From Acanthamoeba castellanii str. Neff (taxonomy: Eukaryota; Discosea; Longamoebia; Acanthamoebidae), in the NCBI RefSeq assembly GCF_000313135.1, contig NW_004457291.1, positions 68,183 through 127,879 on the forward strand: 59,697 nucleotides of DNA. The letters are read 5' to 3'. Below the pieces are notes generated by a model. That model was not told the DNA's origin. It ran no database searches and saw nothing but the letters and a program-made list of their open reading frames with translations. A program made the translations under genes and the position numbers. Below, in pieces: positions 3,787 through 44,684 of the stretch. Positions within the stretch are counted from its first letter, which is position 1; every line of letters begins with the position of its first letter.

Positions 3787-3821
3787 TCACACCAACTTCA
3801 GCCACCAACCTCTGCCTCCTC

Positions 3822-5056: not shown

Positions 5057-5600
5057 TCATGTAATCAGCAATGACAACAAAACGCCAGCAGGATCATATT
5101 CCAGCTCCCACTCAGGACCATGCATTATGCTGTACAGGCACTCATCATTCTTGCAATCAATGAGCACCAACTGCATGTGGTGGGGCGCAAACATGAAGGC
5201 ACTAAAGTGTGAATGCCTGGCCACCAGCATCTCCACAGGGTTTGGGTGGGGGTTGCATGTGGATGACATGACTGTGAAGCAGTCATCAGCAGGCAGTCCA
5301 TCAATGAAGGCCTGGACGCTGCCTTCCTTGCTGCTGTAGCTGTTGAGCTCTTCCTGCCATTTGTAGATGTTGGGTGGTGCTTGGCAGAGGTGTGTCACTG
5401 TACCTCTGGCATCCTTCTGTGGGGTGTTGAACAGTGTGTTGATGAGGGAAGTGTAAATGCGTAGAGTGTAGGTGATGTCTCACTTTCCATTGGCGCCTGT
5501 GACCTGCTTGGCCTTGGTCTCAGCAGTGATGAGGGGGCGCTTCTTCTTGGATTGCAATTCCGTGCTGGCATTGCTGTTGGACTTCCAGCATCACGAGAGT
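5057..5600 (-). pseudogene. Decayed reverse-strand coding remnant, function unknown
   Basis: The minus strand is open from 5398 to 5057 (113 residues from a Met). The same frame is protein-like further upstream to about 5590, interrupted by a TGA at 5480-5482 between ...KQVTGANGK and DITYTLRIYTSLINTLF. Composition is that of a folded protein (Trp, Cys, His and hydrophobics mixed, e.g. HLCQAPPNIYKWQEELNSYS and HSHFSAFMFAPHHMQLVLID). I recognise no family and see no promoter or clean splice pattern rescuing the TGA. A missed intron is possible. Called a remnant because of the stop and the surrounding unusual composition. Confidence 0.35.
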
Positions 5601-10270: not shown

Positions 10271-13200
10271 TCAGAAGTCGGCGGGACCCATGTAGCCGAC
10301 GTTGGTGGTGGCGTGCGTGACCTCGTGGAAGGGATTACTCTGCACGGCCACGCTCACGGGCACCTCGGAGAGCTCCACATCTTCGGTCGGGATCACGCGG
10401 CGCTGCTTGAAGCGGAGCAGGATGAACGCGCCGGCGCCCACGCAGCAGCACGCGCCCACGGCCATGAGCGCCACGGCGCCCATGGTGCCGCCGACGATGG
10501 CGCCGATGAGCTTGCCCTCGTCGTCGCTGGTGGTCGGGCGCTCGACGGGAATAGAGCAGTTGGAGCCCGTCCAGCCCGACTCGCACACGCACGCGCCGTT
10601 GAGGCACTTGCCGTGCAGCGAGCAGAACTCGCGGCAGAACTGGTAGTCGGTCTCGTTGTTCATGTTGCCGCTCACCTCGCAGTACTCGAGCCAGGCCTGG
10701 CCGTTGAGAATGGCCGAGTCGCGCTGGCCGTTGGTCGTGTTCCAGTCGTGCAGGCACGATTCGTACCAGAACGTGGGCGGCAGGTGCGACTGGCTGCACT
10801 TGGAGATCGTGTCCGGGTCCAGGGTGGTCAGCTCGCACTGGTCCTCGCCGCCGCCGCCACCGCCGCCGCCGGGCGTGCCGCCGGGGGTGACGCTGCCGGG
10901 CAGGGTGGGCGGGATGACCGAGCAGCCGCAGCCGCAGTGGCACGAGTGGTCGATGTCCCAGCACTGGCTGTAGGCGTCGGCCAGGTCGGCCGTGGGCAGG
11001 TAGTAGGTCTGGCCGTTCGGGCACTGGAGGCCGAACCCGGGCGCCTCGCCGCCGTTGGAGCCGCACAGGCCCTCGAGCTGGTCGAAGTAGGCGCTGGGCG
11101 TGCCCACCGTGACCGTGAGCCAGCGGATCGTGGCCGACACCAGGAGCGAGGTCTTGATGCGCAGGCCGCTCGCCAGCACGAGCTCGACCGAGCGCGACGT
11201 GGTCGTCACGCGCACGCCCGAGGCGGAGGTGTAGGTCATCGACCCGTTGACGAGGCTGCCGGCGGGCAGGGCCTGGCCGTTGAGGGTGACGGTTATGGTC
11301 TGGAGCGAGTCGAGGTACACCACGAAGGTCTCGTTGGCGTCCACCGCCTTCACGCCCACCGCCGCCAGGCACGACGCGTTCGCAAAGCACTCGGCGAACC
11401 GGCCCTGCACGATCACATTCTCGATGGTCGTCGTCGCACGCTTGCTGACGCTGCTGCTGTTGGTGGCGATGATGGGCGCGGCGGCGCGGGTGCGGGTGAT
11501 GACGTAGTCGCCGGGGCGGCGGAAGCTGAAGGCCGACTTCTGGTCGAAGGTAACTACGTGCGGGTCGCCGAAGATCTGGCAGAAGTTGTTCTCCGGCGCG
11601 CTGCAGTCGAAGCCGTGCCACGTCGGGTCGCACACGCACTGGCCCGTGGCGCTGTTGCAGGTGCCGTGGCCCGAGCACTCGTTGGGGCACGCGGTGCTGA
11701 TCTGGCACGAGGCGCCGGACCAGCCGGCCTCGCACACGCACACGCCGTCGCTGCCGCAGGCGCCGTTGCCGCCGCAGTCGGAGCACTGCTGGTCGGGGGT
11801 CTGCTGCTCGCAGGCGGCGCCGGTGAAGCCGAGGCCGCACACGCACACGCCGGTGCTGGTGCACGCGCCGTTGCCCGAGCAGCCGCCGGCGCAGGTCGGG
11901 GGCGCGATCGAGCAGTCGGCGCCGGACCAGCCGGCCTCGCACACGCACACGCCCGCGCTGCAGGTGCCGTGGCCCGAGCAGGCGTTGGGGCACGCCACGA
12001 TCGGCTGCGCGCAGTCGGCGCCCGTGAAGCCCGCGGCGCACTGGCACGTCGCCGGCTGGGTCGCGCTGCAGGTGCCGCGCAGGGAGCACATCGCGGGGCA
12101 CGAGGCCGGGCCGGTCGGGCTCCAGGTGATCGAGGTGCTGGTCGTGTTGTCGATGGCCGTGAACGAGCCCTGGAAGGTCTGTGAGCCGATGCCGGCGTAG
12201 GAGCCGGTCGAGCCGGTCATGGTGACGACGGTGTAGACGAGGCTGCTGTTGGCCAGCGGCGCGTAGCCGTTGACCAGCACCACCTGGATCCAGCCGCCCT
12301 TCGTGACGCTGCCCGTGCAGGCGATGACGTTGTAGTCCACCACCGGCACGCCGCCGCCGATCTCGAACTGGAGCACGGCCGTGGTAGGGTGCTGGTGGAG
12401 GTCGCCGTCGATCACGAGCTTGCCGCCCGCGGTGCCGCCGGTCGGGGCGATCACGCCCGAGTTGACGATGCTGCCCACCACCACGCCCGAGCCGGAGATC
12501 GTAGAGCCGTAGTTGTTGACGATGGGCACGTAGGTGACCACGCTACCGCCGCCCAGGTGCAGGCCGCCGCGGGTCTGCTCGCAGCCCTGCTGCAGCGCGA
12601 CCGTGGCGCCCTGACCGATCTGCACCAGGCCGGAGTTGATGATGCGCACCTCGATCGTGACGGTCTGAACGATGGTGATGGTGATGCGGCCGACGTTGGT
12701 GATGGGGGACGTGGCGGGCGAGCCGCGGCGGCCGCAGGTGATGGCCTGCGCCGCCTGGGAGACGGTCCACAGGCCCGTGAGGTCGTTGGTGATGGTGGCG
12801 TTGGCCTGGAGGTCGATCACGCCGCCGACCCACTCGAGCGTGCCCTGGTTGAGCAGGTGGCCGCACTTGACCACGAGCCCGGCACCGCCGATCGTGGCGC
12901 GCGCGCCGGGGGCGATGACGAACGTGCTGCTGCAGCCGTCGAAGGTCGAGCCGTTCACGGCCAGGGAGCCGTTGCACTCAACGCGGCCGCCGCCGCCCGA
13001 GATGACGGTCGAGCCGTTGCCGATGGTGACGCTGCCGGGCAGGGTCACGTTGTGGGCGGTGGTGTTGAGGCACGCGGCGTCGAGGCGCACCACGGCGCCG
13101 AAGGCGATGGGCGACGCGCTCACGGTGAACTGCACGCAGCCGCTGGTGACGATGATGATGTCGACGTTCCACGAGCCCGACACAATCGTGGTCGAGTTGA

Positions 13201-16200
13201 CGATGGTCGTGGAGCCGCCGCAGTTGTACTCGGAGCCGGGGCCGTGGCAGATGTCGGCGGCGAAGGTCACGCTGGCCGACTGGACCACCACCATTGCGCC
13301 CACGTTCAGCGAGGCGCGGCTGAAGGTCGCCAGCGCGCCCGAGGCCACCGTGAGCGAGCCGTAGTTGGACCACGTGGCCACGAACGCCACGCGGCAGTTC
13401 ATCGTCACCGTCGCGTAGTTGATGAAGGTGGCCTGGGTGCTGGTCGCGGTGAGGCAGCCGCTGCTGGCCACGCTAGAGTCCACGAGGGTGAGCCAGCCGC
13501 TGGTCACGCTGGCGCTGCAGCTCACGGCCACGCCGATGATGAAGGTGCCGTTGTTCTGGCACGTCGAGCCGCCGATGAGAACGATGGTGCCCTCGTGCCA
13601 CTCGACGGTGCCGGTGTTGATCAGGGTCGGTCCGTTGCACTGCTTGTCGCCGGGGCCGCTGATGATGGTCGAGCCGCCGAGCCACACCGAGCCGCCGCCG
13701 ATGATCTGCGAGCCCTGCCAGCCGCACGAGCCGCCGATGACGATCTTGCCGCCGCAGTTGACCTGGCCGCCGATGAGCACGGTGGTCGACGAGACGACGG
13801 TGGTGAAGGTGCCCTCGATGATCAGCACGCCGCTCACGATCTGGATGTCGACCACGATCACGAGCTCGGCGCACGCGGCCACGACGTAGGTGCCGCCGTT
13901 GAACTGGAGCGCGGCGAAGCGGTAGGCAGTGCAGGCGGGCCACTGGACCGTACAGTTGTCGCGGGTCTGGATCGGCGCGCAGGTGTCGGTGGTGTTGGTG
14001 CCGGCGCCAAAGGTCACGTTGGCGCTGTCGCGGATCACGATGCTGCCGCCGGTGCCGATGTTGAACTGCGTGTCGATGGTGACGAGCACCACCTCGTTGC
14101 GTACGATGAGCGAGCCGGAGCCGATGACCGACACGCCCGTGGTGAAGGTGAAGCTGCCAGTGCTGAGCACGAGCGTGGCCCCGATGTTGATCTGGATGAC
14201 CACCACCACGCTGCCGCTGCCGCAGCCGCACACGTGGCCGCCGCCGTTGAGGACCAGCGAGCCCGCGGAGACGGTGATGGAGCCCGTGCTGTTGACGAAG
14301 GCCTCGAAGGTGATGGTGCCGGTCGAGATGATGAGCACACCGACGTTGACGAACACGCCGGTCTGCAGGGTGAGCGACGAGGAGCCCGCGGCCGGTGCGC
14401 ACTGCCAGGTGCCGCTGTTGACGATGGAGCCGGTGCCGGGGTAGATCGTGCCGCCGATCCACTGGACCGAGCCGTAGTTGATGAGCTGGGTGACGGTGAG
14501 GCTCACGGTGCCGTTGATGATCGTCGTGCCGCGGAGTTGGAACTCGACGACGACGATGACGCCGCTGGTCCAGGTGAAGCTGCCGGTGCTCACGAGCACG
14601 CCCGAGCCGCTGATGACCGTGCCGGAGCCGACCAGGACGAGACTGCCGGCGCAGGTGGTCTTGCCGTTGACCACGAGCACGCCGCCGACGATGGTGATGC
14701 GCACGGTGATGACCACCTCCGCGCAGGCGCTTACCACGAGCTGGCCGCCGAAGAGCTCCACCGTGGAGACCGAGTAGGCGAAGCAGTCGACGAAGGACAC
14801 CACCGACGCGTTGTAGAGCTGGAGCGGCGAGGCCGGGTTGGTGATGTTGGTGTGGGTCTGGCACGTCACGTTGGCGCTGTCGCGCACGATGATGGCACCG
14901 CCGGTGCTGAGGTTGATCTGCGTGTAGGTGAAGACCACGACGACGGTGTTCTGGACAACGAGCGAGCCGGCACCGGTGATGACGACGCCCGACGAGAAGG
15001 TGAAGCTGCCGGTGTTGAGGACCAGGCGCGCGCCGGTCACGATCTGCACGCTGGCCGCCGCGCCGCCGCTTCCGCAGCCGCAGACGTGGCCGCCGCCGTT
15101 GAGGACCAGCGAGCCCGCGGAGACGGTGATGGTGCCCGTGCTGTTGACGAACGCGAAGAAGACCACGTTGGCGCCGCTGACGGTGAGGGTGCCGCTGTTG
15201 ATGAACACGCCGGTCTGCATGGTCACGCTCGCACCGCTGGCGAGCCAGGTGCCGGTGTTCTCGACCACGGAGCTGCCGTTGATGAAGAAGATGCCGGACA
15301 CCCACTGGAGCGAGCCCGAGTTGATGAGGTGGCAGTCGAGGAGCGTGGTCGAGGTGGTGCCGTTGAGGTAGGCGGTGCCGGTGAAGTGCACCTGGGCCAC
15401 CGCCAGCACGCCGCTGCTCCAGGTGACGCTGCCGCTGGTCACGAGCAGGCCGGAGCCGTTGACCAGCGTGCCGGCGCCGATGAGCTGCGTGGCGCCCGAG
15501 CAGGTGACTTGGCCGTTGATGGTCAGGAGGCCGCCCACGATGGTCAGGCGCGTGACCACGGTCAGCTCGGCGCAATTGTTGACCACCACCACGCCACCGT
15601 AGAGCTCGAGCGTGGCCAGCGAGTAGGCGTAGCAGTCGGCGAAGGTCACCACGCCGCCGTAGACCTGGAGGGCCAGCGAGCCGAAGGTGGTGGCGTTGTG
15701 GAAGCTCACGTTGGCGCTGTCGCGTACGACGAACTTGCCGCCGCTACCGCTGAGGTCGAACAGGGTCTCATTGCTGGTGACTGTGGCGCCGGTGTCGATC
15801 ACGAGCGAACCCGAGCCGGTGACGGTGACGCCCGCGCTGAAGGCCAGCGTGGCGGTCGAGGTGATCTTGACGGTGGCGCCCGCGGCGATGTCCACGGTCG
15901 ACGCACCGCCGCAGCCGCACAGGTGTCCGCCGGTGGTGAGGCTGAGGGTAGCGCCGGTGGCCACGGTGATGGCGCCCGCGCTGCCGTCCAGGAGCGACGA
16001 CGCGGTGACGTTGCCCACTACGGTCAGGTGGCCGGCGCCGGTGTTGGACAGGGTGCCGTTGACCAGGGCGAGGGTCGACGAGCTGTTGCCGGCCGTGAAC
16101 GAGCCCGTGTTGGTGATCACGGACCCGTTGGCGAGGGTGAGCTTGCCGCTGGACCAGGCGAGCGTGCCCTGGTTGACCAGGGTCCACCACGTTAGGAGCT

Positions 16201-19200
16201 TGTCGGCGGCGCCGCTGATGGTGCCGGTGCCGCGGGTGATGATCTGGCCGTGGCTGCCGCTGCCGCCGAAGGAGCCGCTGGTCCACTGGAACGTCGAGTT
16301 GGCCACGTAGTCGCCGGAGCCGACCAACGAGCCGCCCTGGAGCACGAAGCTCGTGTTGGCCTCGACGACGAACATGTTGGTGAGCGTGCCGCCGGACACG
16401 ACGAGGCTGTTGACCTGGACGTGGGCCGTGGGCGAGACCAGCACCGAGACGCTGTTGCTCATCTGGATCGAGTTGAAGCGGTAGACGAAGCCGGCCGGCG
16501 CCTCCTTGACGATGACCGAGCCGCCGAGGAGCACGAGGTTGCGCAGGGGCGCGTTGACGCACGTGGAGTTGGGCCAGATGATGAGCGTGCCGGAGGTGAG
16601 CGTGAAGTCGGTGTCGGTGTCGTTCTGCGCGCAGTTGTACTCGACGACGGCGCCGTTGTTGCCAAAGTAGCCGTCGCCGTCGACCACCAGGTCGGGGCCG
16701 ATGGAGACGGTGCCGTTGATGAAGTCCACCGCCGCGTCGGGGCAGATGTACATGTGGCCGTGGAGCGAGGCCGACTGCAGGAGGTGCAGCTGGGCGTGGC
16801 ACACGTAGATGTAGCCCGTGGGCGCGTTGGTGAGGTAGACGGACGCGTTGAGCTGGCCCGAGGTGAGGTACAGCGAGCCCTCGTTGTCGTAGCGGCACAC
16901 CGACGAGTCGTTGGTGCGCAGGCTCAGGGTCGATCCCGACGTGCCGTTGATCAGCGCCGAGGCACCCAGCGCGTTCTCGAAGACGCCGCCGTTGCGGCAC
17001 CAGACGTCGCCCTGCCACCAGGTGGCGTTGCCCTCGTTGACGATGCGGCGCGCGTCGATGTTCTTGGAGCCGCCGCGCATGGTCAGAGTCTTGAGCGCGG
17101 TGGTGGAGCCCGAGCCGCTCATGAGGCCGCCCGTCCAGAGCAGATCGCCCTGCACGGACAGCGAGCCGCTGCCGGTGATGACGTCGCCGCTGAAGGCGTA
17201 GTCGCCATCGACCACCATGTCGCCGTCCAGAACCAGCTCGCCCGAGGTCTGCGTGACGCTGCCGTTGACGTACACGGTCTCGCCCGCTGCACGCTTCCTG
17301 GTGTTGCCGGCCGACGAAGGGAAGACGTTGATGCGGCCGCCGGTGAGGGCGATGCTCTTGACGTTGTACACGAAGCCGTTGCCGGCCGAGAAGTTGAAGA
17401 CGCCGCTGCCGATCTGCAGCTGCGTGTTGGGCAGGGTGAAGTTGGGCACGGCCACGATCGAGCCGCCGCTCACGAGCACGGTGCCGTTGGTGGTCAGCAA
17501 GGCGGCGATGGTCGTCACGCCGCCCACCACCTTGAAGGTGCCCGCGTTCTGCACGTCCGAGGTCGACTCGACGCTGAACTCGCCGCTGGTGAGAACCTGC
17601 GCGCCCGCGGCGATGTTGATCGCGCTGGCGAAGGTGCCGTTCTTGGTGAAGAGCATGGAGCCGCTGGTCTGGTACCAGCCCTGGCCGCCCACCCACACGC
17701 TCGCGCCGATGGTGACGGTGCTTGCCGCCGCGTTGCTGCCGACCACCTTGCCGTGGCTCACCAGGTTGCACCGGCCGCTCGAGAGCGTGAGCGCCAGGCT
17801 GGACGCGGTCGAGTTGATGGTGAGGGTCGACTGGTTGGTCACGGTGATCGAGCCATTCGAGTCGCACAGCACGTCGCCCGCGCTCCAGTAGCCCGCGTTG
17901 TTGATCTCGAGCGCCCGTCCGCTCAGCACCTTGTTGGCCCCGCTCATCAGCAGAGTGCCGTTGGAGATGGTGGAGCCGGAGCCGCGCATGGTGCCGCCGG
18001 AGAAGTAGAGGCTCTGGAGGACGGTGAGGGAGCCCAGGCCGTCGACGACGCCGGTGCCGGTGAGGTTGTAGCACTGCGCCTGCATGGTGCCGTTGACGGT
18101 GAAGGTGCCGCCGGTCTGCTGGACGCAGGCGGGCACCTGGAGGTCGGGTCCGGCGGTGTTGGAGCCGCCGCCGATGACATTGATGTTGCCGCCCTGCTGC
18201 ACGATGGCCGGCACGGTGTACTGCCAGGTGACGTTGATGACGACGACGAAGTTGACGGTGCCGCCCTGCACGATGAGCACGCCCACCGTGAAGACGAAGC
18301 TGGGGCCGCAGTTGACCGTGCCGCCGATGACCTGCACGATGCTGATGGTCACCTGGGCGTTGATGTTGACCACGCCGGTGGTGACGGTGAGCCTGCCGCC
18401 GCCCTGGACGAGGCACGTGCCGGGCAGCGCGTAGACGCCGCCGGCGAGGTCCACCCGCGAGCCGGTCGCCACGGTGATGACGCCGTAGAACACGCCGCCG
18501 TTGGGAGCTGTGGTCACGAACCACACGTTGCCGACGTTGATCTGCAGCACGGCGTTGAAGGTGACGTTGATCTGGATGGTGACGTCGATGCTGACGCTGG
18601 GCGACACGAAGAAGTCGCCCGCGCTCTGCAGCTGGCAGATGGCGGCAGCGGCGTTGGCGTTGGTCAGGGTGACGCTCGCGGAGGCGTTCACGGTGAAGGG
18701 CGTGCCGGCGGCGGTCGAGATCACGGCGCCGCCGCTGCAGGCGATGTTGCCGCCGGCCCAGAAGCCGGTGTAGTTGCTCACGAGGCCGCGGTTGATGAGG
18801 GTCTTGACCGAGCCGTCGAGGAGGAGCACGCCGTTGGCGATCGTGGAGCCGATGTCGGTCATCGAACCGCCGGTCCAGGTCAGCGTGCCCTGCACGACCA
18901 CCACGCCGGCGCCGGTGAGCAAGCCCGCGGTCTGTGTGTAGTAGCCGATGACCACGAGCTGGCCGACGACGGTGCAGGTGCCGCCGCTGATCTGGACGTA
19001 GGCGGTGACCCGCACGGTGATGCCGGTTTGCACCACCACCTGGCCGCTGGCCTGGAGCACGATGGCGTAGACGACGTAGACGGAGGTCGACGCGCCCGGG
19101 ACGAAGGTGACCACGCCCGTGTTGTTGACCCGAAGCACCGCGGCGGCGATGTCATAGCTCGAGTTGTAGTACACTTGTCCGCCGGTGACCAGGATGACAC

Positions 19201-22200
19201 CTGTGAGGGTGTAGCTGGCCGACGTGGTGACGGTGCCGCTCACCACCAGCCACGTGCCGGCGCCCTGGACGACAGCGGTCGAGGTGGCGGTGTAGGTGCC
19301 GGAGAGGCTCACCACGGCGATGGCCGCGATCTCGGTGACGCTGGTGAAGGTGCCGGTGCGGATGAAGGCCACAGTGCCGATGTTGACCTGGAAGAAGCCG
19401 GAGAACTGGACCACGGCGTCGATGGTCACCGTGATGCTGACCGAGGTGACCACCTTGAAGTCGCCGTAGCTGTTGAGGCTGCACGCGAGGCCGGCGCCCT
19501 GGTTGATGGCGACGTTGGTGGTGGCGTTGACTGTGAACACGCTGGTGGCCAAGCTGGTGATGGCGGCGCCGTTGCTGCAGGCCACCGACCCGGAGGTCCA
19601 GTAGCCGAGGTAGTAGTTGACGATCGTGCGCTGGGTGAGGGTCTTGACCGTGCCGCCCAGGACCAGAACGCCGTAGATCACGGTGGAGCCCGTGCCCGAC
19701 TGGGTGCCGTTCTGCCAGGTGAAGGTGCCGTTGGTGCTGACCACGCCGGAGCCGGTGAGGGTGCCGGTGCTGAGCCAGAAGTCGAGCACGACGGTGAGCG
19801 TGCCGGGCACGGTGCAGGTGCCGCTGGTGATGACTACGGACGCCGACACGTAGACGACGCCCGAGACCGTGACGCTGCCGGTGCCGGAGAGGTTGATGCC
19901 CAGGACGACGTAGGTGTAGCCGGGCGCGTTGGCGAAGGTGACCACGCCGACGGTGGTGACGACGAGCGTCGTGGCGGGCAGGGTGAATCCGTTCTGGCAG
20001 GCCAGGGTGCCGCCCACGACGATCATGGTGCCGGTGAAGGTCCACGAGCCCTGCGTGGTCACGGTGCCGCCGGAGACGCGTACCAGGCCGGTGCCGGTGA
20101 TCGAGGAGCCCAGCACGAAGGTGTAAGGGCCGTTGAGGTCCACCAGCGCGTTGCCGCCGCCGAGGTAGATGACGCTGTTGAAGGTGCCGCCGCCCGTGGC
20201 GAAGTACACGCTCGTGGTGGTGCCGACGTTGACCACCGCGTTGAAGACGACGGTCACGGTGAAGGTGATCTTGGCCGTGGCGCCGAAGTTGACGACGCCG
20301 TTGTTGGTGAAGGTGCACTGCTGGCCCTGCGACGAGTAGAGCATGCCGCGGTCGGCGGTGCCGTTGACCAGGAGCGTGGTGTTGGCGCCCACGCTGAGCT
20401 GGCCGCCGTTCGAGCAGGTGATGTCGCCCGCCTCCCAGATGGCGAGGCCGTTGGACGAGGCGCCCGTGACGGTGATGCCCACGTTGCTGATGGTCTTGGT
20501 GCCGCTGGTGACCACCTGGATGGAGCCCGCCACGATCTGGCCCGTGCCGGAGATCTGGCCCTGGGCGAAGATGAGCACCACGGTGACCTGGAGGCTCGCG
20601 GCGCCCTGCACGACCAGGGAACCGCCCTGCAGGTTGTACGACACGGTCACGATGAGGGTGACCTGGATGTTGACCACGCCGGCGTACTGCACGATCGACG
20701 GGATCGACCGCTCGACGACGCCCTGGTAGGGCAGGAAGAACACGTTGCCGCCGTTGACCGTGAGAACGAAGTTGGCCGCCGGGAACGAGGCCGACGCGTA
20801 GAAGTTGACCGCCGCCGGGTTGAACACGATCACCTGGCCGCCCACCATGGCGATGGAGCAGTAGATGTAGACCGTCGTGTAGATGCGGATGATGCCGGCG
20901 CCGTTGATGACCACCGTGGTGCCGAAGGTGTAGGTGCCGGTGGTGAAGTCGATGATGGCGCCGGCGCGCACCTCGATGGTGCCCGCGCCGGTGAAGTCGC
21001 CCGAGCCCACGAACACGATGACGCCCACCACCACGGTCAGGTTGCCGCTGTGGGTGACGCGCGCGGGAATGGTGAGCGTCGTGCCGCCGGTCTTGATCAG
21101 CGTGCCCTCGATGTTGATCACCGACTGCGGGCCGCTGGTGACGAACTGGCCGTTGCCGGCGACGATCCACGAGCCACCGACGATGACGTTGATGGTGACC
21201 GAGTTGGCCAGGGAGATGTTGCCGTTGAGCCACTGCACGGCGCCGCCGAAGGAGACAGTGCGGGTGTCGATGTAGATCACCGTCGTGCAGTCGATCACGC
21301 CCTGGCCGTTGATGTAGGTCACTCCGCTGCCGGACATGATGCCGCCGTACCAGTAGAAGTTGATCGTGATGTAGATGTTGCGGTCGCCGGTGAGCGTGCC
21401 GGCGTAGAAGTAGAACACGTGCACGTTGTTGTTGCTCGAGCCCACCGTGAAGGTGCCGCCCTGCAGGCGGATGGTGATGATGACCGTGACCGAGCCGTCC
21501 ATGAGCCACACCGAGCCCGAGGGGCCGTTGATGACGATCTCGTTGATGTGGTATCCCGTCGAGCCACCGGGCGTGGTGCCGAAGGTGACCTGCGTGTTGA
21601 CGATGAGGACCGTGCTGCCGATGAGCTGCGCCGGGTCGATGAAGTTGATCAGGCCGCTGTCGCACACCACCTGGCCGCCGGTGCTCAGGTTGAACGTGCC
21701 GCCGATGGTGGCCGACCCGTTGGCGAAGCGCACCACGCCGGAGCCCGTGAAGATGACGGTCGACGAGAACGAGTAGAAGGCGTCGAGGAAGTGGATCCAC
21801 GTGCCGACGCTGATCACGAAGCTGCCCGTCATGGTGCCCGAGCCGTGGAGGATGATGACGCCCACGTTGATGATCACGGTGCCGTTGTTGTTGAAGACGG
21901 GCCAGATGTGCAGGTCGCCAGGCGAGTTCTTGATGAAGTCGCCCGAGCACACCACGGCGCCGCCGCCCACGCCGGTGGTGATGTTGTACGAGCCGTTTAC
22001 GACGAACACGGCGCCCACCTGGATGTTGAACGAGCCGCCGTTGGACAGCTGGATGTTGCCGCCCTGCCAGTCGACGGCACCGTAGACGATGACGACGCGC
22101 ACGTCGATGATCTTGGTCGAGGGGCCGGAGATGACGACGGGACCCTGGAAGACGGTGCTGCCGAAGCCCGAGAAGATGGTGTCGACCCACACGACGACGC

Positions 22201-34200: not shown

Positions 34201-37200
34201 GTGCAGGACAGCGAGCCGTAGTTGTTGAGGGTCACGTACACGATGTTGGACTGCGACGACTTGATGATGGTGCCGTTGTTGACCAGCGAGGCCTGCGCGG
34301 TCGACGGGCTGGGCGACCAGGCCGCATTCTCCTGCGGGTACGGGTACTGCGGGTAGACGATGCGCGGCGAGTTGAGGTACAGCGTACCGTTGGGCGTGTT
34401 GTCAAACACCGACGCGTCGTGTTGGTAGAAGTGACCACCCGCCCACGAGACCTGATGATGTTGTGTTGATTTCGCGTCAGTCAAACATATTCGAACCAAA
34501 TCAAGGGAGAAGGACGTCACGTACGTTGCCATAGTTGCGGAGAAGGCGGGCCAGGTGCTTCTCGCCGATGGTGGTCAGCGTGAGCGTGGTGCCGATCACG
34601 AGGGTCTTGCCGGTGCCGGTCATGTAACCGGAGCTCCACGTGCTGGGCTTGACGAGCGACAGCTCGCCAGAGCCGGTCAGCTCGCCGCCGTCGAGGGTGA
34701 GCGCGGGCAGCAGCAGGTCCCACTGGGTCATGTCCACGGTGCCGCCGGAGACCTGCAGCGTGGAGCCGACGCTGTCGCTGGCGAACACGACGCCGGGCGA
34801 CAGCACGTAGTGGTCGCCGTCGATCTGCATGCTGGCCTTGGGGAACTTGGTGTAGCCGCCGGTGACCCAGAGTCGACCGAGGTTGATAAACGAGCAGTAG
34901 ACGTTGTTCACGCCGCTGGCGAACTCGATGGTCGACGCAGCATCGCCGCGGATGGTGGCGTTGACGTCCACCACAGCGTCGCCAAACGCAAGGATGCCGC
35001 CGGTGAGCGCCTGGTAGTCGCCCTCAGCGCTGTAGCTGCCGCCGAAGAGCTCAAGGCGTCCGCTCGTGACCTCGGTGTGGTTGAAGTTCTCGAAGCTGAG
35101 GCCGATGCGAGCAGACACTGCCGCACCGCGGCTGCGCACGACACCGTGGTTCTCGAAGCGGGCCTGGTTCGAGCCGGAGAGGGCGATGCTGAATCCGGTG
35201 CCCGCGGGCTGCACGATTTCGAACAGGGCGTTGGGCGAGTTGACGAACACGCCGGCGTCGATGCCGACACCGTTGCCGCCGATCCACTGCGTCAGGTTGT
35301 TGTTGATGACCGGGCGGCTGAAGCCGAAGGCGACCGTGCCGGGGAGGATCTGCAGCGTGCCGTCGAACACGGTGGTGCCCGCGCCGCCCATGTTGCCGCC
35401 GCTCCAGGCGTAGGCGCCGGGAATGGTGACCATGCCCGAACCCTGGAGGACACCGTTGGACTGGGCGCCAGAGGGGATGGTCACGTTCCAGTCCTCGAGG
35501 TCGAGGGTGCCGCCGGTGAGCGCGATCGGGGGGAAGGGCACGGGGAGCTGCTCGAAGTTGGCCGCACCGGCCGACACCTGCAGGGTGGGACCGAACGAGG
35601 TGAACTTGACGCCGGCGCGGAAGTTGACGACGCCGCCGTCGACGATGGGGTCGTTGGTCGACTGCAGGTCGGCGAACACGTTGCTCACGCCGCCGGTGAA
35701 CTTGAAGTTGCCGCTGCCCGTCAGGCGGCAGGTGGTGGCAAGCGTGTGCTGGTCGGTGTTGTCCGAGCCGTCGAAGGAGACCTGACCGCCGGTGCCGGCC
35801 TCGTAGCGCGAACTGGCGCAGCTGCCGCCGGCCGCAAGCGCCAGATTGCCGGCCGTCGAGCTGACCAGGGCGCTGGCGCCGATGTTGTTGAACACCATGG
35901 TGAAGTAGGACCGGAAGGTCGCATAGCTGGACTTGGTCACCAGACCGAAGTTGTCGAACACGCCGGGCGCGTTGCCGGCAGTGGTGCAGAAGCACTGGCC
36001 CTGGGCGTTGGGGTCGGCCTGGAAGGTGGCGTTGTTCCAGTTGACGAACCGCGCGCCGCTGCTGGCGAACGCGCTGCCGCTGGTCCACTGCGTGAGGTTG
36101 TAGTTGACGATGTCGCGCGCGAAAGTGGTGCTCGAGGCGCTCGAGACCAGCAGCTTGCCCTGCACAACGGTGGTGCCCACGCCGGCCATCGCACCGCCTG
36201 TCCAGCGGTAGGTGCCCCAGATCGTGGCGTTCTGCGTGCCGGTCAGCGTGCCGCCAGACTGGGTGACGTCCTGGATGGCGTGCATGGCGTCGCCCAGGTC
36301 GAGCGTGCCGCCGCCGATGAGGAGCGCCGGGTGGTCGAGGTTGATGCCGTAGTGGAACAGCAGCGTGCCGCCGGTCACTTGCAGGCTCTGTGTGGCGGTG
36401 TTGGTGAAGCTGACGCCCGACAGGAGGTTGGCAAGACCACCGGTGACTCGCAGGTAGCCGCTGTTCTGGAAGCTGCTGCGCACGTTGACGACGCCGCCCG
36501 ACACGACGACCACGCCGCTGGTGATGCTGGAGAGCGAGCTCAGGGTCGACGTGCCAGACTCGAAGACGATGGGCTGGGCGCTGCCGGGCTGGAACACGCC
36601 GGAGCTGTAGCCGCCGTTCGAGATGTAGAGGGCCTGGCCGGCGGTCGTCACGGTGCCGTTGTTGTTGAACGGAATGCCGATGTGGCCGATGTCGGAGCTG
36701 GCCGACGTGGTGACCAAACCGTAGTTGTCGAAGGAGGCGGTGGCGCCCTGGAGGTTCATGCGCCTGTCCCGTCCGCTGGTGTAGCTGTTGCAACAGCTGA
36801 GGCTGATCGTGAAGGTGGCCGTCGGGTTGTTGGTGAATCCGCCGCTGTAGGCCTGGATGTTGCCGCCGGACCACGTGAGCTGCTGGTTGTTCACCACACG
36901 GCAGTTGAGGGTCTGCACAGAGCCGAAACAAACTCTTCGTTAGCATCAAGACAATCGTTGCGCTGGTGTTGCGTGCCTGCGTGCGCGCGCCCTACAACAA
37001 AAAGTCGTGGCGCAGACGTACCTTGTCGGAGTAAGCATAGAGGTAGTCGTAGACACTGTTGGACGCTGTTCCCGTGAGCGCAGCCGTGCCGTTGTTGATA
37101 AGCTGACCGCCTTCGAGGGGGCAAGACACGGTGCCCCGGTTCCAGGTCAGGGTCTGCAAGACAGTCACTGAGCCCTCGATGTTGACCGTCGCCGTGGATC

Positions 37201-40200
37201 CGTAGATCTCGTTGGCACCGACCGTCAGCGAGCCAAGAACGTGGGCGTACTGGCCGAAGTTGATTACGCCATTGTACGCAGCTGCGCGTGGGTGATAACA
37301 AAGAAATGTTAGCAGCTGCACCGAACAAAAGAGAGCGACTCAAAGAGAACACAACAAGGCCCTGGTACGCACCAATGGCAGGCACGTTGTTAGTGGCGAC
37401 GTCGGCGAAGGTGAGCGCGCCGGTAGTGGGGGAGACACCACCGATGCCAACGTTGATGGCGCCGCCAGCGACGAACCGGGTCGCCGACTGCACGGTGGTA
37501 AGGCCCGTAACAACAATTGTGCCCGCGCCGGTGAGGGCCACACGGCCGCCCAGGTCGACAATGTTGGGGAACTGGAAGGCGCCAGAGCCGGAGATCGTGG
37601 TCGAGGGGTCGAAGTAGACCGACGACCCGATCAGGTTGAGGGTGCCCGAGCTGGCGGCGCTGAAGGTGCCGTTCACCTGCGTGCCCACGGCATTGATTGA
37701 GAGCGTATTCGCCGAGACGGAGACTGCGCCGGGAGAAACAAACAGAGTGAGTAAAGTTGAACAATGCAGTGTGTGTCGCGTATAGCGCGAGAAGGGAGTG
37801 CGTACTCGTGCCGTAGTTTACGACGCTGGTGCCAATCGAGGCTCCGCTCAGGGCACCGGCTACCTGCGAAATGGTACCGTAGTTGATCACCTGGCCGGTG
37901 AGGGTCGAGCCGGTGATGCTGCCGTCGGCGGTGATGGTCAACGCGGAGGCGGGGTCGACGATCAGCGACGCGCCGCTGGACATGGCGATCGGGCCGCTGG
38001 TCCAGCTGGACGAGGGACCGCTGAGCTGCAGGGTGTGCGCATCGATCGCCTTGCCCGTGAGGGTGGAGAACACCACGCTGCCGAGCACCTGCGTTCGTCC
38101 ACGTCCTGTGCAACACAACAGTTGTGAGCGCAAGAGAAAGAGAGGGGGTGGTGCAAAACAGCTGGTCGGGGCTTGGCTCGTACCCTGAAGGGAGCCGGCG
38201 TAGAAGTTGAGGTTCTGGAGGACAGTGATCAGGCCATCGGCGATCACGGTGCCCGAGAATTCGCCGCCGGAGGTGCCCAGCTGCATGGAGGACAGGGTCA
38301 CGGTGCGACAGTTGAAGTTGGCCGTACCGCCCTGGGCCTGGAAAGGAGCGCCCAGGTCGATCACGGTCGCCTCAGCTCTGCAAAAAGACAAGCCAACGGC
38401 GCATAAGCGATTGTTATGTAATGAACAAAAAGTTGAGTAGAGCGTACCTCACGTCGAGCGTGCCAGAGACGACGGTGGTGCGGCCGCCAGAAGCGTCGTA
38501 AGTGCTGGACACGATCAGGGAGCCGCTGTTGACCAGGAGCTGGCCAGCCACGGTCACCTTGGACGAGCGGTCGAAGAAGTAGGAGGCCACGACGCCATTG
38601 CTGGGCGAGTCGACGCTCAGGATGCCGCCGCTCTGCACGGAGATGGTGTTCCAGTTGGTGCCCGCAGCGACGGCCAGTGTGCCCTGCGCCACGACGATGC
38701 TGCCGTAGTTCTGGAAGTCGACCAGCACGCGGCTCTGCGCCGACGCGCCCTGTCCGGTGATCAAGCCCCTGTTGACCATCTGCACGCCGAGCGATCCCGT
38801 GACGGTGCCTACGGCCGAGAACACGAAGCTGCCGCTCACGTCGTTGATGAAGGAGGCCGAGCTCATCAGGACGATGTTGCCGTCTGTCCAGCTGCCCGTG
38901 CGTTGCTGTGTGGTGGCGCAAGTGGTGGTGGTTAGTCCTGCCTCCCCCTTTTGTAATTGCCAGTTGATGGTGAGCAAGCGCTTACATTGTACAGGGTGGC
39001 CATGTTGAGGGTCTTGACGTTGGAGCCAGAGATGGCCGTCGTGTTGAGCACGGTTACGGAGCCGGAGCCCTGGATCGCGCCGCCAGTCTATAGAGAAATA
39101 ATGAATCAAACGAAACGGTCAGTAACCAACACCAGTGGCATGCGGTGGCCCACGGTAAGCGAGGGCGTACCCAGGTGAAGAGCGTCACAGGCATGTCGAC
39201 GTTGGTGGAGAAGGCGCCGCCGGACACCAGAAGCGAAGGAATGGTGAAGTTGAGGCAGTGAATGCGCATCAGACCACCGCTCACGATGAACTGCGACGGC
39301 ACGCTCTGCGGCTGCACGTAGAGATCCGCAATACCACCGCTCACTGGTGGAAAAAAGGAGAGGGTCAGAGGGAGCGGCCAAGAGCGAGCACTGAGAGAAA
39401 GCGAGAGAGAGTGGGTCGGATACCGGTCAGAGGGTTGCCGAAGTTGGCCAGCGTGGCGTCCAGGTTGAAGTTGGTCTGACCGTCGCTAACTTCAGTCGAA
39501 CCGGAGACGTTGAAGAGCGAGTCGACGTTCACCGTGCCCGAGAGGACCGCCTTGCCCGAACCCGCGAAGGTCGAGTTGGGGAGCAGCGAGAAGACGCCGC
39601 CAAGCTGCACCGTGGCCGCCGGGCCGAAGGTCGCCGTGCCGTTGTTGTAGCCGCCACCGGCGAAGTAGACCAGGCCGGAGCCCGAGGCGCGGAGGGTGGC
39701 ATTGTCGTTGTTCTGGAAGGCGAACTGCAGCGTGGCCGCGCCGGCGCCGATCGAGTCAAAGGTGGCGTTGTTGACGAACACGGAGGGCTGGCCGCCGGCG
39801 TTCAAGAAGCTGTAGGGCGAGGCGAAGTTGAGCGTGAAGGTGGCAGTCGAGGGCGAGTTGATGATGGTCGCGCTCGAACCGGCAATGCTGCCGGCAAGCC
39901 ACACAGCGTCCTGTGTCACACGCAGAGAGAGAGAGAGAGACGTAAGTAACCATAGCCGGCGCCGAAGGCGAAAACAAAAGGCTGCGTACGGCGAAGTTGT
40001 TGAGCGTGGTGAGCGTGATCTGCTTGGTAGCCGCTGAGTCGATGGTGACGCCGTTGAGGCACTGAACGCCGGAGACCAGGTTGTAGAGCACACCGCCCAG
40101 CCAGTAGAAGCGCTTGCTGGTGATCAGGGGCGCCGTGCCGGTGAGCGTGCCGGCCGAGAGCGTGAAGTCCTCGTTGGCCAGGAACTGACCGCTGACTGAG

Positions 40201-43200
40201 TGGGTGCCGCCCAACACGTAACCGGGGCAGTTGACGTTGACGGTGCCGCCGATCTGCAGGCCGGTGTCGCGCAGGTAGAACCCGGTCGAGGCGGTGAGAT
40301 TCTGGGTGGTGCGCAGCGTGCCGGCGATGTCGAGCACGGTCGCGTCGATGTTGGCATCGTGGAAGTCGGCCGTGCCCGAGGTGATGTTGAAGTAGTGGCC
40401 GATGTTGGTCAGGATCGAGCCCGCCTGCAGATCCAGCAGGTTGCCGCTGATCAGGGTCGTGCCGCTGACGTCGAGCACGGCGCCGGACTGCACGGCCACG
40501 GTGCCGTTCCAGACCTTCAGGGTGCCGGCCACCGTCATCACGCTCTTGGCGAGCAGGTTGTGCGTCACGGCGCCGGTGAACGTCAGGGTCGCGCCCGCCG
40601 CCACGTCGAACTGACCAGCGTTCTTGGTACCGTAGCCGGAGATCTGCACCGTTCCGCTGGCGATCGAGAAGTTGCCGGACTGATCGAACAGCGCATTGAT
40701 CACGTTCGTGTTCGTCCTGTGGGCCAAGGAACACAGACTGTAAGTCGGCGGCCCATGAAGTAAAAAACAACTGCGCGAGAGAAAAAGCGTACCCGTTCTT
40801 GTACATGCGACCGGAGTTGGCAAAGTACAGCGAGGTGCCTCCGATCCAGTTCAGCGAGCCACCGGGCACGAAGTAGAACTGGCCCGAGCTGACAATCGAA
40901 CCACCGCTCGTACCGGCAATGTCACCCTGGTAAGAGAGAAGAATGGGTGAGTAACCCAAGTGGCGTGTGCGGTTGCGAGGTTAGCGTAACGTACAGCGAT
41001 CCAGGAGGCGGTGCCCGCAACATTGATGCGACGAGAGTCGAGCGACTTGACAGTGGGGGTGTCGATGACCAGGCCACCGGAGCACTGCATGACGCTCGGG
41101 CCACCAGCGATCTTGCCGCCCAGCCACTGCGTCTGCTTCGACACCACGATCTGACCGCTGCCGTCCAGCCGACCCGCGTCCTGGAGCGTCAGCGCGCCCT
41201 TGATGCTGGCGTAGGCGTTGAAGATCACTGCTCATAGCAAACATGCATGTGTGTTGTTAGTCATAAAGGCAAATATGTGGGTGTGTGTGTAGGACGTCAA
41301 GGAACGAACCTGATCCGGTGGAAATGATGTTGAGCTGGCCGGAGAAGACGATGTTCTGGAAGGTGGTGAGGCTGCCACCCGAACACGTGGTGTTGGGCAG
41401 GATCACGCCGAGGCTGCTCACGCTGAGCACGCCAGAGCTGATGGCGACGGTGGCGCCGAGGCTCTGGATGGACGACAGCGAGCTGAGGTAGACCTGGCCG
41501 CCGGCGACGATGGTCTGGCCCAGCATGTTGACCTGCGACACGATCGTCGTGCTGCCGCCCGTGAACGACAAGGTGCCGTTGCCCTGGAGCACGCTGCCCT
41601 GGTCGAGGCTGGTGGTGCCCGCCGTAAATTCCAGCGCGGAGCGCACGGTGAAGGTGCCCGTCGACGAGCCACCACCGCTGAGAGACAAGGTGCCGGCGAA
41701 GGCGTTGACGGTTCCCGTGTTGCTGTGGTCAACACGCACCCCCGGAGAAAGTCAGGCATTGCTTGACAACGACGACGAATAATTAAGAAGTGGGAGAGGG
41801 TGGTAATGAACCTGAGCACGGCGGCGATGACGGAGATGTCGGTGCTGTTGACCTTGGTCAAGGTGCCGGTGTTGACGATGGTCCACGCCGAGCCCAGAAG
41901 GTTACCGTCGGTGATGAGGCTGATGGTGGCGTTGTTGGAGTTACGGATCTGCGCAGCGCCCGATCCCGTCAGCGTGCCGGACACCGTGAGGTAGCCGTAG
42001 TTGTTGAACTGGTGGCCGTTGGAGATCGTCGAGCCGGCGCCCGTGACCACGGTGTTGTAGGCAACGATCGTGCCACCGCCCAAGTTGCCGCCTGTCGTAT
42101 GGTAGTGCGGTAAATTCAATAAAAGATGGCAAGATGAGCTGACGTAAGAGGTCCTCATTTGGGAGGGTTAAGGAGTAGGGACCACGCACCTTGCCAACGG
42201 AAGGTGCCGGTGACAGTGGTGAGACCAGAGCCGGAGAGCACGGCGCCCGAGGCCATGGTGAAGCCGGCGTTGAGGTTGAGACGAATGCCAGCCTTGACCG
42301 AGATGCCGGCCTGCATGAAGAGATCACCGGGAATCGTGACGTCGGCGTTGAAGAAGTGGGTGCCGCCGGTGATGTTGAGCGCGTCGGGGAAGCGCATGGC
42401 GGTGTTGAGCACCAGGCTGCCGCCGAGGAGCGAGGTGTCGGGCAGCTGCACGGAGAGCGCGTTCACGGTGAGCGTGCCGGTGCCCTGCACGATGAGCTTC
42501 GAGCCGAGTGACGCGATCGACGCCGAGGCAGCGAGCGTGTGGCTGCCGCCCTGGACCGTGGTGACGCCGAGCACGTTGTAGCTGGCGCTGATGGTCGAGG
42601 TACCAGCGCTGAAGTTCACCGAACCCGCACCCGCGATGGACGAACCGGCATTGAACTGGGCGTTGCCGCCGGCGATCTGCAGCGCAGCCGGGGACGCTAC
42701 GTTGACGGGACCGCTGAAGACACCACCGCCCTGCAGGGACAGGACACCGTTGGCGACGTTGATGGTGCCCGTACTGGTGAAGGCCGGTGCGAGCGACACC
42801 GTGATGGCGTCGGGGAGGACCATGGATCCCACGTTGTTCAGCGACCAGCTCGAGCCCGAGAGCAGCGCGCCCGTCTGCAGCACCATGGTGCCGGAGTTCT
42901 TGAACGTCGCCGAGCCGCTGCCGGCCAAGGCGCCGGAGATGGTGCAGTTGCCGTTCGAGTTAAGGTTACCGCCGGTGATCATCGAGCTGCGCACGATCGT
43001 GAACGACTGCTGCACGTCGATCCTGGTCACGGAGATGGTGCTGCCGCCGAGCGTGAGGTCGTTGACGAAGGTGGCGATACCGCTTCCGGTGAACACGCCG
43101 CCGTTGAGGCTGTTGTTGAAGCCCGTGGCCTGAAAGACGTTGCTGATGGTGATCGTGCCGCCCGTCTGGCTGAACGAGTCCGTGACCTGGACGGTGCCGG

Positions 43201-44684
43201 CGAGCGTGAGCGCACCGCCGGCGACGCTGAGCTTGCTCAGAGTCAACGAGTCCGCCGAGCCGAACAGGTTGAGCTGGGCTGAAGCGCCCGATACGAGGAC
43301 TTGCGAGCCGAGTTTGGTGATCGACGTGCCGATGCCGATGTTGAGCGGCGCAGACACCACCGCCAAACCGGCGTTGTCCAGCTGAGAGTATCTGTTGTTC
43401 GAGAAGACCGAGACAGAGACAGATTAGAACGGGAACGCATGTGAGGGGAGGAGTGGGGGTGGTCGACGTACTGGTAGTATACATTGCCTCCGGTGTAGTA
43501 CATCGTTCCGCTGCTCACCACGTTGGCGCCCACGTTGACGGTGTGTGTGGCCACGCCGGCAAAATTGATCGCTCCCGTAGTCGCGATGGTGATAGGCGCC
43601 CACGAGTCGCTGCCGCCGGAAACGGTGAGGTTGCCCTGGAGGATGTTGAGCTTGCCCCTGTGGCTCATGTAGGCCGACACACGGGCCACGCTGCTCGTGC
43701 TGGGAAGCGAGATGTTGAGCGTGCCGTTGTTGGCAAAGAGGGCCGTCGTGCTCGCCGAGCTGAGATCGACCGCGTTGGTGATCACGAACTCGCTCTGCGT
43801 GTTGGAAGAAGAAAAAATGAGAAAGGAGAGTCCAACGAGGAGCGAGATGTGCGCAGTGGGAGGAGTGCGGTAAGAAAGTGTACCGCCGGAGAGTTCATGA
43901 AGGTTGAGCTGGCGCTCAAGACCAGGTTACCGTTCTTCCACAGGCCACCGCCGTTGGCGCTGAGGGTGCTGCCGGTGCCGAGAGTGCGGCCGGGGCAGGT
44001 GGTGCAGTCCAGTGTGAGAAGACCGTTGATGTTGGTAGTGCTGGTCACGCTCAGCTGACCGCCGCCCCACAAGAGAGGGCCATTGACCTGTACGCCAGCG
44101 TGGTGGAGGTGGTCTCAGGGTGAGTAACGCGAGTTTTATTTCGGGCGGGTTGTGGGGGTTGTGGGGGGGGGTTGGGGGCGTACAATGAGCTGGCCAGGGC
44201 CGTAGATGTTCGACGCAGCAGTACCATTGTAGATCAACGATGCCACAATCAACGAGCAGGGCCTGTTCACAGATTGAGCGCCGTCGAGTGTATTAGATTT
44301 TTCAATTGAAACGAATCGAGCGCGCAATTCAAATTCAGATCGAGGCTGAACTTTGATTGCTCTGCGCTGGTGGGGCACGTACGCGGTGATGCGGAGGCCG
44401 CCGGCAGTGATCGTGAGCGACTTGGCTTCGAGGCTCGCTCCGTTGATGTCGATTGTGACTCCGGTGGTGGCGAGGAGAACATCGTCGTCGGCAGTGGGCG
44501 CGGTGCCTGTGTTCCAGTTGGAGTTTTCGGTCCAGGCTCCCAGGTTGGGCCCTTGCCAGGTGACCGTGGCCGCCGCTGCCGGCTGCTGGGCCGCGATGGC
44601 CAAGACCACGATCAGACACGCCAAGAGTACGTGACCGAACTGTTGTGCGCGACCTGTATGATACGAACCACCGGTCGAGAACAA
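10271..44684 (-). CDS. Giant membrane-anchored beta-solenoid repeat protein, 10,896 residues
   Basis: One gene of 34.4 kb in 21 exons, the last being 10271-32430. From 5' the others are: 44684-44383, 44262-44184, 44087-43884, 43794-43472, 43391-42190, 42091-41812, 41722-41310, 41227-40995, 40926-40793, 40716-39990, 39910-39424, 39343-39171, 39087-38986, 38905-38448, 38377-38184, 38105-37806, 37723-37373, 37281-37022, 36912-34525 and 34451-32531. Coding length is 32,691 bases and all phases agree. Order: signal peptide (1-40); W-x-NW start module (VTWQGPNLGAWTENSNW); solenoid repeats to ~3600; EGF-like modules ~3634-3695; second W-x-NW module ~3703; more solenoid with a LamG-like domain at ~6240-6450; Cys-rich EGF-like cluster ~10286-10458; VWD-type domain (CQIFGDPHVVTFDQ); poly-Gly; one EGF; TM helix ~10818-10849; 47-residue tail with SNPFHE. 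Surface location is well supported. A role in adhesion or phagocytosis is inference. Confidence 0.85.
10415..12110 (-). other. C-terminal EGF cluster, VWD-type domain and TM anchor of the giant protein
   Basis: At about 12105-11590 there are five Cys-rich EGF-like modules with repeated C-x-x-x-C-x-G-x-G-x-C and VCVCEAGWSGADC-like spacing. At 11585-11030 the sequence CQIFGDPHVVTFDQKSAFSF opens a von Willebrand factor D-type domain with GDY following, ending near the LCGSN motif. Then come a Cys-rich patch (CHCGCGC), a Pro/Gly-rich spacer with eight consecutive Gly, a further Cys-containing segment and a last EGF (CSLHGKCLNGACVCESGW). The hydrophobic stretch LIGAIVGGTMGAVALMAVGA and onward is followed by RFKQRR, the expected stop-transfer charge. 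This layout is typical of eukaryotic cell-surface adhesion proteins. Confidence 0.85.
13960..16010 (-). repeat. Three tandem ~840-bp units within the giant exon
   Basis: The sequence encoding GGGHVCGCGS-like peptide occurs at 14223, 15075 and 15912 (offsets 852 and 837 bp, i.e. 284 and 279 codons). The first two copies are nearly identical over at least ~75 bases from the anchor; the third (GGHLCGCGG) is more diverged. The protein between anchors repeats in the same order: solenoid strands, a VIxRDSANVTF-like segment, an aCAEL segment, then the marker N-x-G-x-x-x-W-x-x-G. This is a segmental tandem duplication younger than the rest of the array. Confidence 0.8.
23600..24270 (-). other. LamG/concanavalin-like domain embedded in the giant protein
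   Basis: About 215 residues (roughly 6240-6455) break the solenoid pattern. Landmarks are VSFWANVAAS, an FEARTTSGG segment, TWVHYAMSYDGATGQRTIYV, LRIGCSVTSGDSCLSGSVDE, VRLFNRALAAGEV and GLVAYYGFED. This is the usual order of a LamG-type jelly-roll domain (F-W, W-H-h-A, I-Y-V-D-G, D-E-V-R-L-F-N-R-A-L). Such domains bind glycans or extracellular matrix in known proteins. Residue positions are estimates from the predicted splice model. Confidence 0.8.
31870..32070 (-). other. Internal EGF-like modules ending solenoid block 1
   Basis: The Cys-rich stretch CPYNCFGAGTCNVATGICTC and the following GQGTCVNNTCVCTPPYYGST form two EGF-like modules at residues ~3634-3695. They follow a segment (ILAGGVANFDGTLGITYTQD) that resembles the cap preceding the C-terminal EGF cluster. 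A new W-x-x-W start module (VTWICPAGGNWFTASCW) follows at once. This marks the boundary between two successive solenoid blocks in one polypeptide. Confidence 0.75.
32431..32530 (-). other. Last intron of the giant gene
   Basis: Donor GTGCGT (minus strand, beginning at 32530) and acceptor CAG (ending at 32431) bound a 100-base AT-richer stretch with stops in all frames. Splicing joins ...NGNGVNA to ANTPTGGIAG in frame. This join ties the 20 upstream exons to the 22-kb exon. Confidence 0.75.

What the first reader, a model, noticed from the sequence alone, without database searches (positions are those of the whole stretch)
10271..44684. A ~10,900-residue eukaryotic surface protein of bacterial-adhesin-like solenoid repeats
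Seen: 21 exons with consistent phases, signal peptide, solenoid repeats, EGF-like, LamG-like and VWD-type domains, TM helix and tail. Known: W-x-NW-initiated Gly/Thr/Ser-rich solenoids resemble bacterial autotransporter/filamentous-adhesin passengers, while EGF/VWD/TM is eukaryotic. Inference: a giant adhesion or phagocytosis receptor, possibly from an ancient bacterial-type solenoid captured into a eukaryotic scaffold. A solenoid of this length could extend far beyond the cell coat.
Basis: partly seen in the sequence, partly recalled or inferred. Interest (0 to 1): 0.9.

Follow-up and report, generated by a model that had tools for sequence, protein, structure and literature searches.

The report
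Giant amoeba protein with bacterial adhesin rods
An amoeba gene appears to encode one enormous cell-surface protein built mainly from a rod-shaped module that is otherwise known here from bacteria, fixed to the amoeba's membrane by animal-like parts; it looks like a long grappling arm, but its role is untested.

Summary
One minus-strand gene, 44768-10271, can be spliced in silico into 22 exons encoding 10,881 aa (1.1 MDa): signal peptide, solenoid, EGF pair, solenoid with a LamG insert, EGFs, VWD, TM helix and tail. The genome is Acanthamoeba: its profilin II equals a PDB profilin II chain over 125 residues (organism recalled).

The solenoid is 38 tandem copies of a ~261-residue module with no Pfam family of its own. 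AlphaFold2 gives confident beta-helices for one module and across a module boundary (pLDDT 92.7 and 93.6). The module is homologous to a bacterial one: 97 further proteins match, best E 3e-124; the ten with an organism name are all bacterial. Of 58 relatives with one N-cap and one C-cap, 55 show the order N-cap, modules, C-cap. The amoeba protein carries this set twice; some relatives do too.

Best reading: bacterial passenger modules were acquired and re-anchored on a eukaryotic membrane base as a roughly 0.2 micrometre adhesive stalk. Origin is well supported; adhesion or prey capture is inferred. Bacterial-like adhesion proteins were already reported in A. castellanii (PMC4053784, passages), so this is a new variant, not a new kind.

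The parts
10271..44768 (-). whole gene: 22 exons, 10,881 aa
   Evidence: spliced in silico, no transcript evidence
44565..44768 (-). putative signal peptide (aa 1-28): exon 1 (44768-44760) and start of exon 2, intron between
   Evidence: start codon inferred
44409..44564 (-). N-cap 1 (aa 29-80), W..G.W...NW..G..P...D type
   Evidence: N-cap model 34.2 bits
32216..44069 (-). solenoid 1: units 1-13 (aa 122-3567); holds 18 of the 21 introns, the other 3 lie upstream of it
32147..32416 (-). C-cap 1 (aa 3501-3590)
   Evidence: C-cap model 38.0 bits
31874..32059 (-). EGF-like pair between the two solenoids (aa 3620-3681)
   Evidence: Pfam EGF_2 over cut-off, EGF_TEN below
31706..31858 (-). N-cap 2 (aa 3687-3737); G8-like below cut-off
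   Evidence: 40.5 bits; G8 18.1 bits against cut-off 22.9
12206..31594 (-). solenoid 2: units 14-38 (aa 3775-10237), no introns
23552..24256 (-). LamG (Laminin_G_3) insert in solenoid 2 (aa 6221-6455)
   Evidence: PF13385 86.9 bits
12200..12493 (-). C-cap 2 (aa 10142-10239), overlapping the end of the last unit match
   Evidence: 42.6 bits
11582..12100 (-). EGF-like array (aa 10273-10445)
   Evidence: EGF_2 5 stretches, EGF_Teneurin 6 stretches in the C-terminal 1,299 aa, juxtamembrane EGF included
10937..11581 (-). VWD domain (aa 10446-10660)
   Evidence: PF00094 32.6 bits, cut-off 22.9; the one VWD match found in an exon-wise search of the genome
10511..10636 (-). juxtamembrane EGF-like domain (starts aa 10761)
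10409..10510 (-). transmembrane helix (aa 10803-10836)
   Evidence: hydropathy 2.35, second after the signal peptide; coordinates
10274..10408 (-). cytoplasmic tail (45 aa) with the only NPF tripeptide of the protein
   Evidence: NPF as endocytic motif is recalled
10271..32430 (-). last exon, 22,160 nt, no intron: end of solenoid 1 to tail

Best explanation
An Acanthamoeba gene, the only intact copy found in its genome, encodes a type I membrane protein of about 10,900 residues. Its ectodomain is two bacterial-type 'N-cap, tandem ~261-residue modules, C-cap' beta-helical passengers in series (13 and 25 modules), hinged by two EGF-like domains and seated on a eukaryotic EGF-VWD-EGF-TM base. SHOWN by computation: gene structure (in silico), module array, homology of modules and both caps to bacterial proteins, predicted beta-helix that continues across a module boundary, host-type anchor. 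INFERRED: the passenger came by lateral transfer from bacteria of the kinds that carry it now (Verrucomicrobia, Planctomycetes, Chloroflexi and others); the C-terminus is anchored and the N-terminus points outward; the rod is roughly 0.2 micrometre long; the surface of the solenoid and the LamG domain grip bacteria, biofilm or other surfaces; the short tail links it to uptake.
For: Gene and open frame. 38 modules. Homology: the A2 profile finds 97 other proteins plus a 96% identical fragment P0002; one window stretch on its own finds 14 proteins at E <= 0.001 among 7,990 scored candidates, best E 1e-70. The amoeba module model finds 406 units in the 98 hits, 168 near full length, and 0 in 490 shuffles; the hits were chosen by a related profile, so the shuffles, not the 98 of 98, are the test. 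Caps: models seeded with the second amoeba caps and then trained on bacterial and unnamed relatives find exactly two N-caps and two C-caps in the amoeba protein, at the ends of the two solenoids. Order N-units-C: 55 of 58 proteins with one of each cap. Two or more complete cap-to-cap sets in order are also seen in 6 of 7 relatives with several caps of both kinds, such as P0019 and L037. Reverse test: P0003, an unnamed bacteria-like protein, against the amoeba genome gives 22 matches, all 22 in this gene, caps included. Structure. Anchor: the EGF-TM stretch weakly matches 21 other host places, 22-41% identity.
Against: No transcript, protein or binding data. Only 10 of the 97 database relatives and 3 of the 14 carry an organism name, all bacterial, and the genome collection holds no eukaryotes, so a wider eukaryotic distribution is not excluded. 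Modules are 16-29% identical to the reference module, near saturation; no tree was built, and donor and date are open. Foldseek E-values to solved structures are all above 0.3 for the unit model; only the second-look aligner gives high Z, and its note warns that repeats reach middling Z easily. Pfam PATR and G8 matches stay below cut-off. With single amoeba caps as queries only 8 and 28 (N) and 14 and 29 (C) of 97 relatives match.
Confidence: 0.68

Rival explanations
1. It is a structural coat or cyst-wall component, not an adhesin or receptor: the solenoid is a stiff spacer that builds a glycocalyx layer.
For: Length, 171 N-glycosylation sequons and few cysteines, Gly/Thr/Ser-rich rods; nothing in the sequence names a ligand.
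Against: TM helix, short tail with NPF, EGF/VWD/LamG set common in adhesive receptors (the last point is general knowledge).
Confidence: 0.25
2. Convergence: any Gly/Thr/Ser-rich beta-solenoid would match; no common descent with the bacterial proteins.
For: Biased composition; module similarity near saturation.
Against: 0 matches in 490 composition-preserving shuffles; module and both caps share order; the A1 profile finds only two PDB sequences below E 0.01, neither an autotransporter passenger, although such passengers are in the PDB; BLASTP of the two consensus sequences gives E 8e-39, an inflated figure because both are consensuses and the bacterial one was aligned to the amoeba model.
Confidence: 0.07
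3. The direction is the other way, or the module is an old shared family: an ancient eukaryotic or universal protein that is also in bacteria.
For: Eukaryote sampling here is poor; no tree.
Against: Bacterial carriers span Verrucomicrobia, Planctomycetes, Omnitrophota, Chloroflexi, Deltaproteobacteria, Nitrospirae, Acidobacteria, Armatimonadetes and others, against one intact gene found in this amoeba.
Confidence: 0.1
4. Two or more genes: the spliced 5' part and the 22-kb exon are separately transcribed.
For: All 21 introns lie before the last exon; solenoid 2 has its own N-cap; no transcript seen.
Against: The last intron lies before C-cap 1, so one frame runs through C-cap 1, EGF pair and N-cap 2 without a stop; decayed copies elsewhere in the genome span the same junction.
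Confidence: 0.08

Closest known systems
Unnamed bacterial cap-to-cap beta-strand repeat proteins (for example L033, L037 in Verrucomicrobia records; P0003, P0019 unnamed)
   Same: module, N-cap, C-cap, their order, sometimes two or more cap-to-cap sets in one chain
   Different: at most 12 units in one chain among those fetched, several of them cut by contig ends; PEP-CTERM-like ends in 13 of 98 hits by a simple pattern; no EGF-VWD-TM base seen
Type V secretion passengers (VacA p55, TibA, Ag43, EtpA)
   Different: no beta-barrel or TPS domain found; their sequences are not matched by the module profile
Bacterial-like adhesion proteins of Acanthamoeba castellanii (Genome Biol 2013;14:R11, PMC4053784; passages seen)
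   Same: bacterial-type adhesins reported in the same genus
   Different: that text names integrin and hemagglutinin domains; whether this locus is among them could not be checked
Candida glabrata Awp1/Awp3b A-domains
   Different: cell-wall proteins (title of PMC8746771 in the listing); no module array or TM base known to me (recalled)

Membership tests
bacterial cap-to-cap ~260-residue solenoid proteins | tandem module | tested here: met
   38 units; same model finds 406 units in the 98 hits and 0 in 490 shuffles
bacterial cap-to-cap ~260-residue solenoid proteins | N-cap before and C-cap after the module array | tested here: met
   two N-caps and two C-caps at solenoid ends
bacterial cap-to-cap ~260-residue solenoid proteins | bacterial export or anchor (PEP-CTERM or similar) | tested here: not met
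   ends in EGF-TM-tail; Pfam scan of the last 1,299 aa shows no such domain
type Va autotransporter | C-terminal beta-barrel translocator | tested here: not met
   none in Pfam scan of the C-terminal 1,299 aa
type Va autotransporter | PATR repeat | tested here: inconclusive
   below cut-off, 14.4 bits against 27; 1 of 20 units at E 0.005
two-partner secretion haemagglutinin | N-terminal TPS domain | tested here: not met
   first 330 aa have no Pfam match at E <= 0.01
G8 domain proteins | G8 domain over cut-off | tested here: inconclusive
   17.0-18.1 bits at N-cap 2, cut-off 22.9; relative P0083 has 30.9 bits
VWD proteins | VWD domain over cut-off | tested here: met
   32.6 bits against 22.9
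right-handed beta-helix fold | continuous beta solenoid | tested here: met

The most novel reading that the evidence does not exclude
A predatory amoeba has taken over a complete multi-module bacterial surface adhesin, cap to cap and perhaps already as a two-module chain, enlarged it by tandem duplication to 38 modules, and mounted it on its own EGF-VWD-TM base with an uptake tail as a roughly 0.2 micrometre grappling arm that holds bacteria with a bacterial tool.
Probability: 0.35. Interest if true: 0.85.

Novelty: new variant of a known kind. Interest (0 to 1): 0.72.

Why it matters
If right, it is a clear case of a whole bacterial surface architecture, both caps included, working on a eukaryotic membrane, in a very large single-chain protein of a protist. 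It gives a concrete candidate for how Acanthamoeba touches bacteria and biofilms. It also defines a bacterial repeat module found in records of more than eight phyla, with two caps and no Pfam family matching the 20 modules scanned over cut-off, that can be searched for elsewhere.

Tried and rejected
Considered and set aside: antisense genes on the plus strand (shadow frames); an '11,008-residue frame' at G000:C78 (its frames in the fetched stretch are almost all masked N); contamination of the assembly (spliced exons upstream in the same frame, decayed copies on another contig); a PHROGs match (0 of 20 units); a Fimbrial match in exon 20 (25.4 bits, cut-off 25.6) and dapD-like matches there, taken as chance. 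The structure aligner's silence on other folds means nothing by itself.

Led nowhere: P0001 region 200-5199 timed out. P0001 region 180-900 found no relative at E <= 0.001 among 657 scored candidates, which by the tool's length rule lie between about 4,100 and 12,900 aa. Two-unit alignments A3 and A4 were badly aligned and not used. A relaxed splice search gave a worse 5' end, and a first hand model had a wrong exon 4 end. Paper searches listed no paper that describes this protein; only listings and openings of abstracts were seen (at most 12 rows each), plus passages of PMC4053784. Supplements were not available, so a locus tag there is not excluded. No tree was built.

Results against or weakening: Foldseek E-values to the PDB are poor. 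The LamG insert matches none of the 97 relatives. 12 of 107 N-cap hits do not lie before the first unit; 11 of 99 C-cap hits end before the last unit (with another rule put 64 after the last unit and 34 inside). 12 of 143 relatives show neither cap. 16 of 38 amoeba units have their best single match in a relative's unit and 22 in another amoeba unit, with 262 units of relatives against 38 of the amoeba. The 143-protein set (97 database proteins, 46 ORFs from loci) is not freed of duplicates and includes an ORF from one viral-contig record. Pfam was not run on exons 7-19 one by one (searches cover other parts).

Full report
1. The gene. The minus strand has one open frame of 7,396 codons (32461-10271). 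Simulated sequences of the same length did not exceed 1,293 codons in 40 runs at each of three Markov orders. GC3 is 0.964, and TTA, CTA and TCA together occur 3 times in 7,397 codons, which explains the long plus-strand shadow frames. A splice-aware dynamic programme trained on this frame joined 21 exons. After hand refinement of the 5' end the model has 22 exons, 21 of 21 GT-AG introns of 68-120 nt, and 10,881 aa with a calculated mass of 1,098 kDa. The first exon (three codons) and several splice sites are choices, not facts.

2. The organism. The genome (38.4 Mb, 250 contigs) encodes a profilin identical over 125 of 125 residues to PDB chain 1f2k_A, named profilin II. That this entry is from Acanthamoeba castellanii is recalled. 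The window is therefore taken as Acanthamoeba, species not fixed.

3. The repeat. Ten columns are conserved at 80% or more, nine Gly and one Trp. Pfam has no family for it: 1 of 20 modules touches PATR at E 0.005. PHROGs gives 0 of 20. NCBIfam autotrns_rpt reaches 14.5 bits against a cut-off of 19.85 in one stretch.

5. Relatives. A profile of six multi-module segments finds 98 proteins at E <= 0.001 among 7,996 scored candidates. The first, P0002, is 96% identical and looks like the same exon from another assembly of the same or a near species (inferred; no name given). Of the other 97, ten carry an organism name, all bacterial. The amoeba module model finds 406 units in these 98, 168 near full length, and none in 490 shuffles. 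A single window stretch finds 14 proteins at E <= 0.001 among 7,990 scored candidates, best E 1e-70; the three with a name are bacterial. A scan of bacterial and archaeal genomes with an alignment of relatives' modules gave 45 loci, all in bacterial records, many of Verrucomicrobia and Planctomycetes kinds; viral contigs gave 1. The amoeba model exceeds 30 bits in 43 of these 46 loci, with at most 12 units in one ORF. As a specificity control, the module profile finds only two PDB sequences below E 0.01. In the reverse direction, P0003 finds 22 matches in the amoeba genome, all 22 in this gene, N-cap 1 and both C-caps included (counts there are lower bounds).

6. Caps. With single amoeba caps as queries, 8 and 28 (N) and 14 and 29 (C) of 97 relatives match, 0 of 490 shuffles. 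Models seeded with the amoeba's second caps and trained on 143 relatives match 107 (N) and 99 (C) of them, 0 of 490 shuffles. They match the amoeba protein exactly twice each, at the ends of the two solenoids, although the first pair was not in training. Of 107 N-cap proteins, 95 have it before the first unit; of 99 C-cap proteins, 88 have it end at or after the last unit. Of 58 proteins with one of each, 55 show N-units-C. Seven entries have two or more caps of both kinds, and six of them show at least two complete N-to-C sets in order, so two passengers in one chain also occur outside the amoeba.

7. Eukaryotic parts. EGF-like domains, VWD and Laminin_G_3 pass Pfam's cut-offs. The juxtamembrane EGF-TM stretch resembles 21 other places in the genome at E <= 0.001 and 22-41% identity; one of them is followed by what reads by eye as a kinase. 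The anchor therefore looks native. The tail holds the protein's only NPF tripeptide, an endocytic signal elsewhere (recalled).

8. History. All 21 introns lie upstream of the last exon, in the first 3,500 residues or so, none in the last 22 kb. At the density of the first part a gap of that size would have a chance near exp(-44). Later acquisition of the second passenger, or intron loss through cDNA, would both explain it; neither was tested. GC3 is 0.905 before and 0.964 after. Neighbouring modules 34-36 and 30-32 are close tandem duplicates. Three decayed, partial copies with DNA matches of 67-92% identity lie on contig C9; two of them have matches on both sides of the junction between the passengers, so that junction is probably older than the copies.

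9. Mechanism and novelty. The anatomy points to a membrane-anchored rod whose bacterial-type surface or LamG domain binds targets; binding is inferred. The A. castellanii genome paper (passages) had already reported bacterial-like adhesion proteins in this species, so the idea is not new. New here, as far as the searches listed under Tried and rejected reach, are the whole cap-to-cap architecture, its doubling, its size and the shared module; those searches cover only an open-access library and listed no paper on this protein.

Noticed in passing
G000:C9:865-867 kb, 961.9 kb and 1008.6-1009.9 kb (L014, L016, L015): Three decayed partial copies of this gene; the one in L014 lies next to what reads by eye as a copia-like element.
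   Followed up: partly
window 49533-52304, strand -: Open frame of 924 aa with a tyrosine/serine-threonine kinase domain (PF07714, 303 bits) upstream of the giant gene.
   Followed up: no
window 52256-53569, strand -: Frame with a 5'-nucleotidase C-terminal domain (PF02872, 98 bits).
   Followed up: no
window 54909-55029: Two exact 61-bp tandem copies, and long AC/CA runs at 5-97 and 380-528.
   Followed up: no
window 32430-10271: A 22-kb exon without introns in an intron-rich gene and genome; cause open.
   Followed up: partly
L090:5345-5492 (G000:C122): Short fragment 73-87% identical to the stretch between VWD and TM, probably another decayed copy.
   Followed up: no
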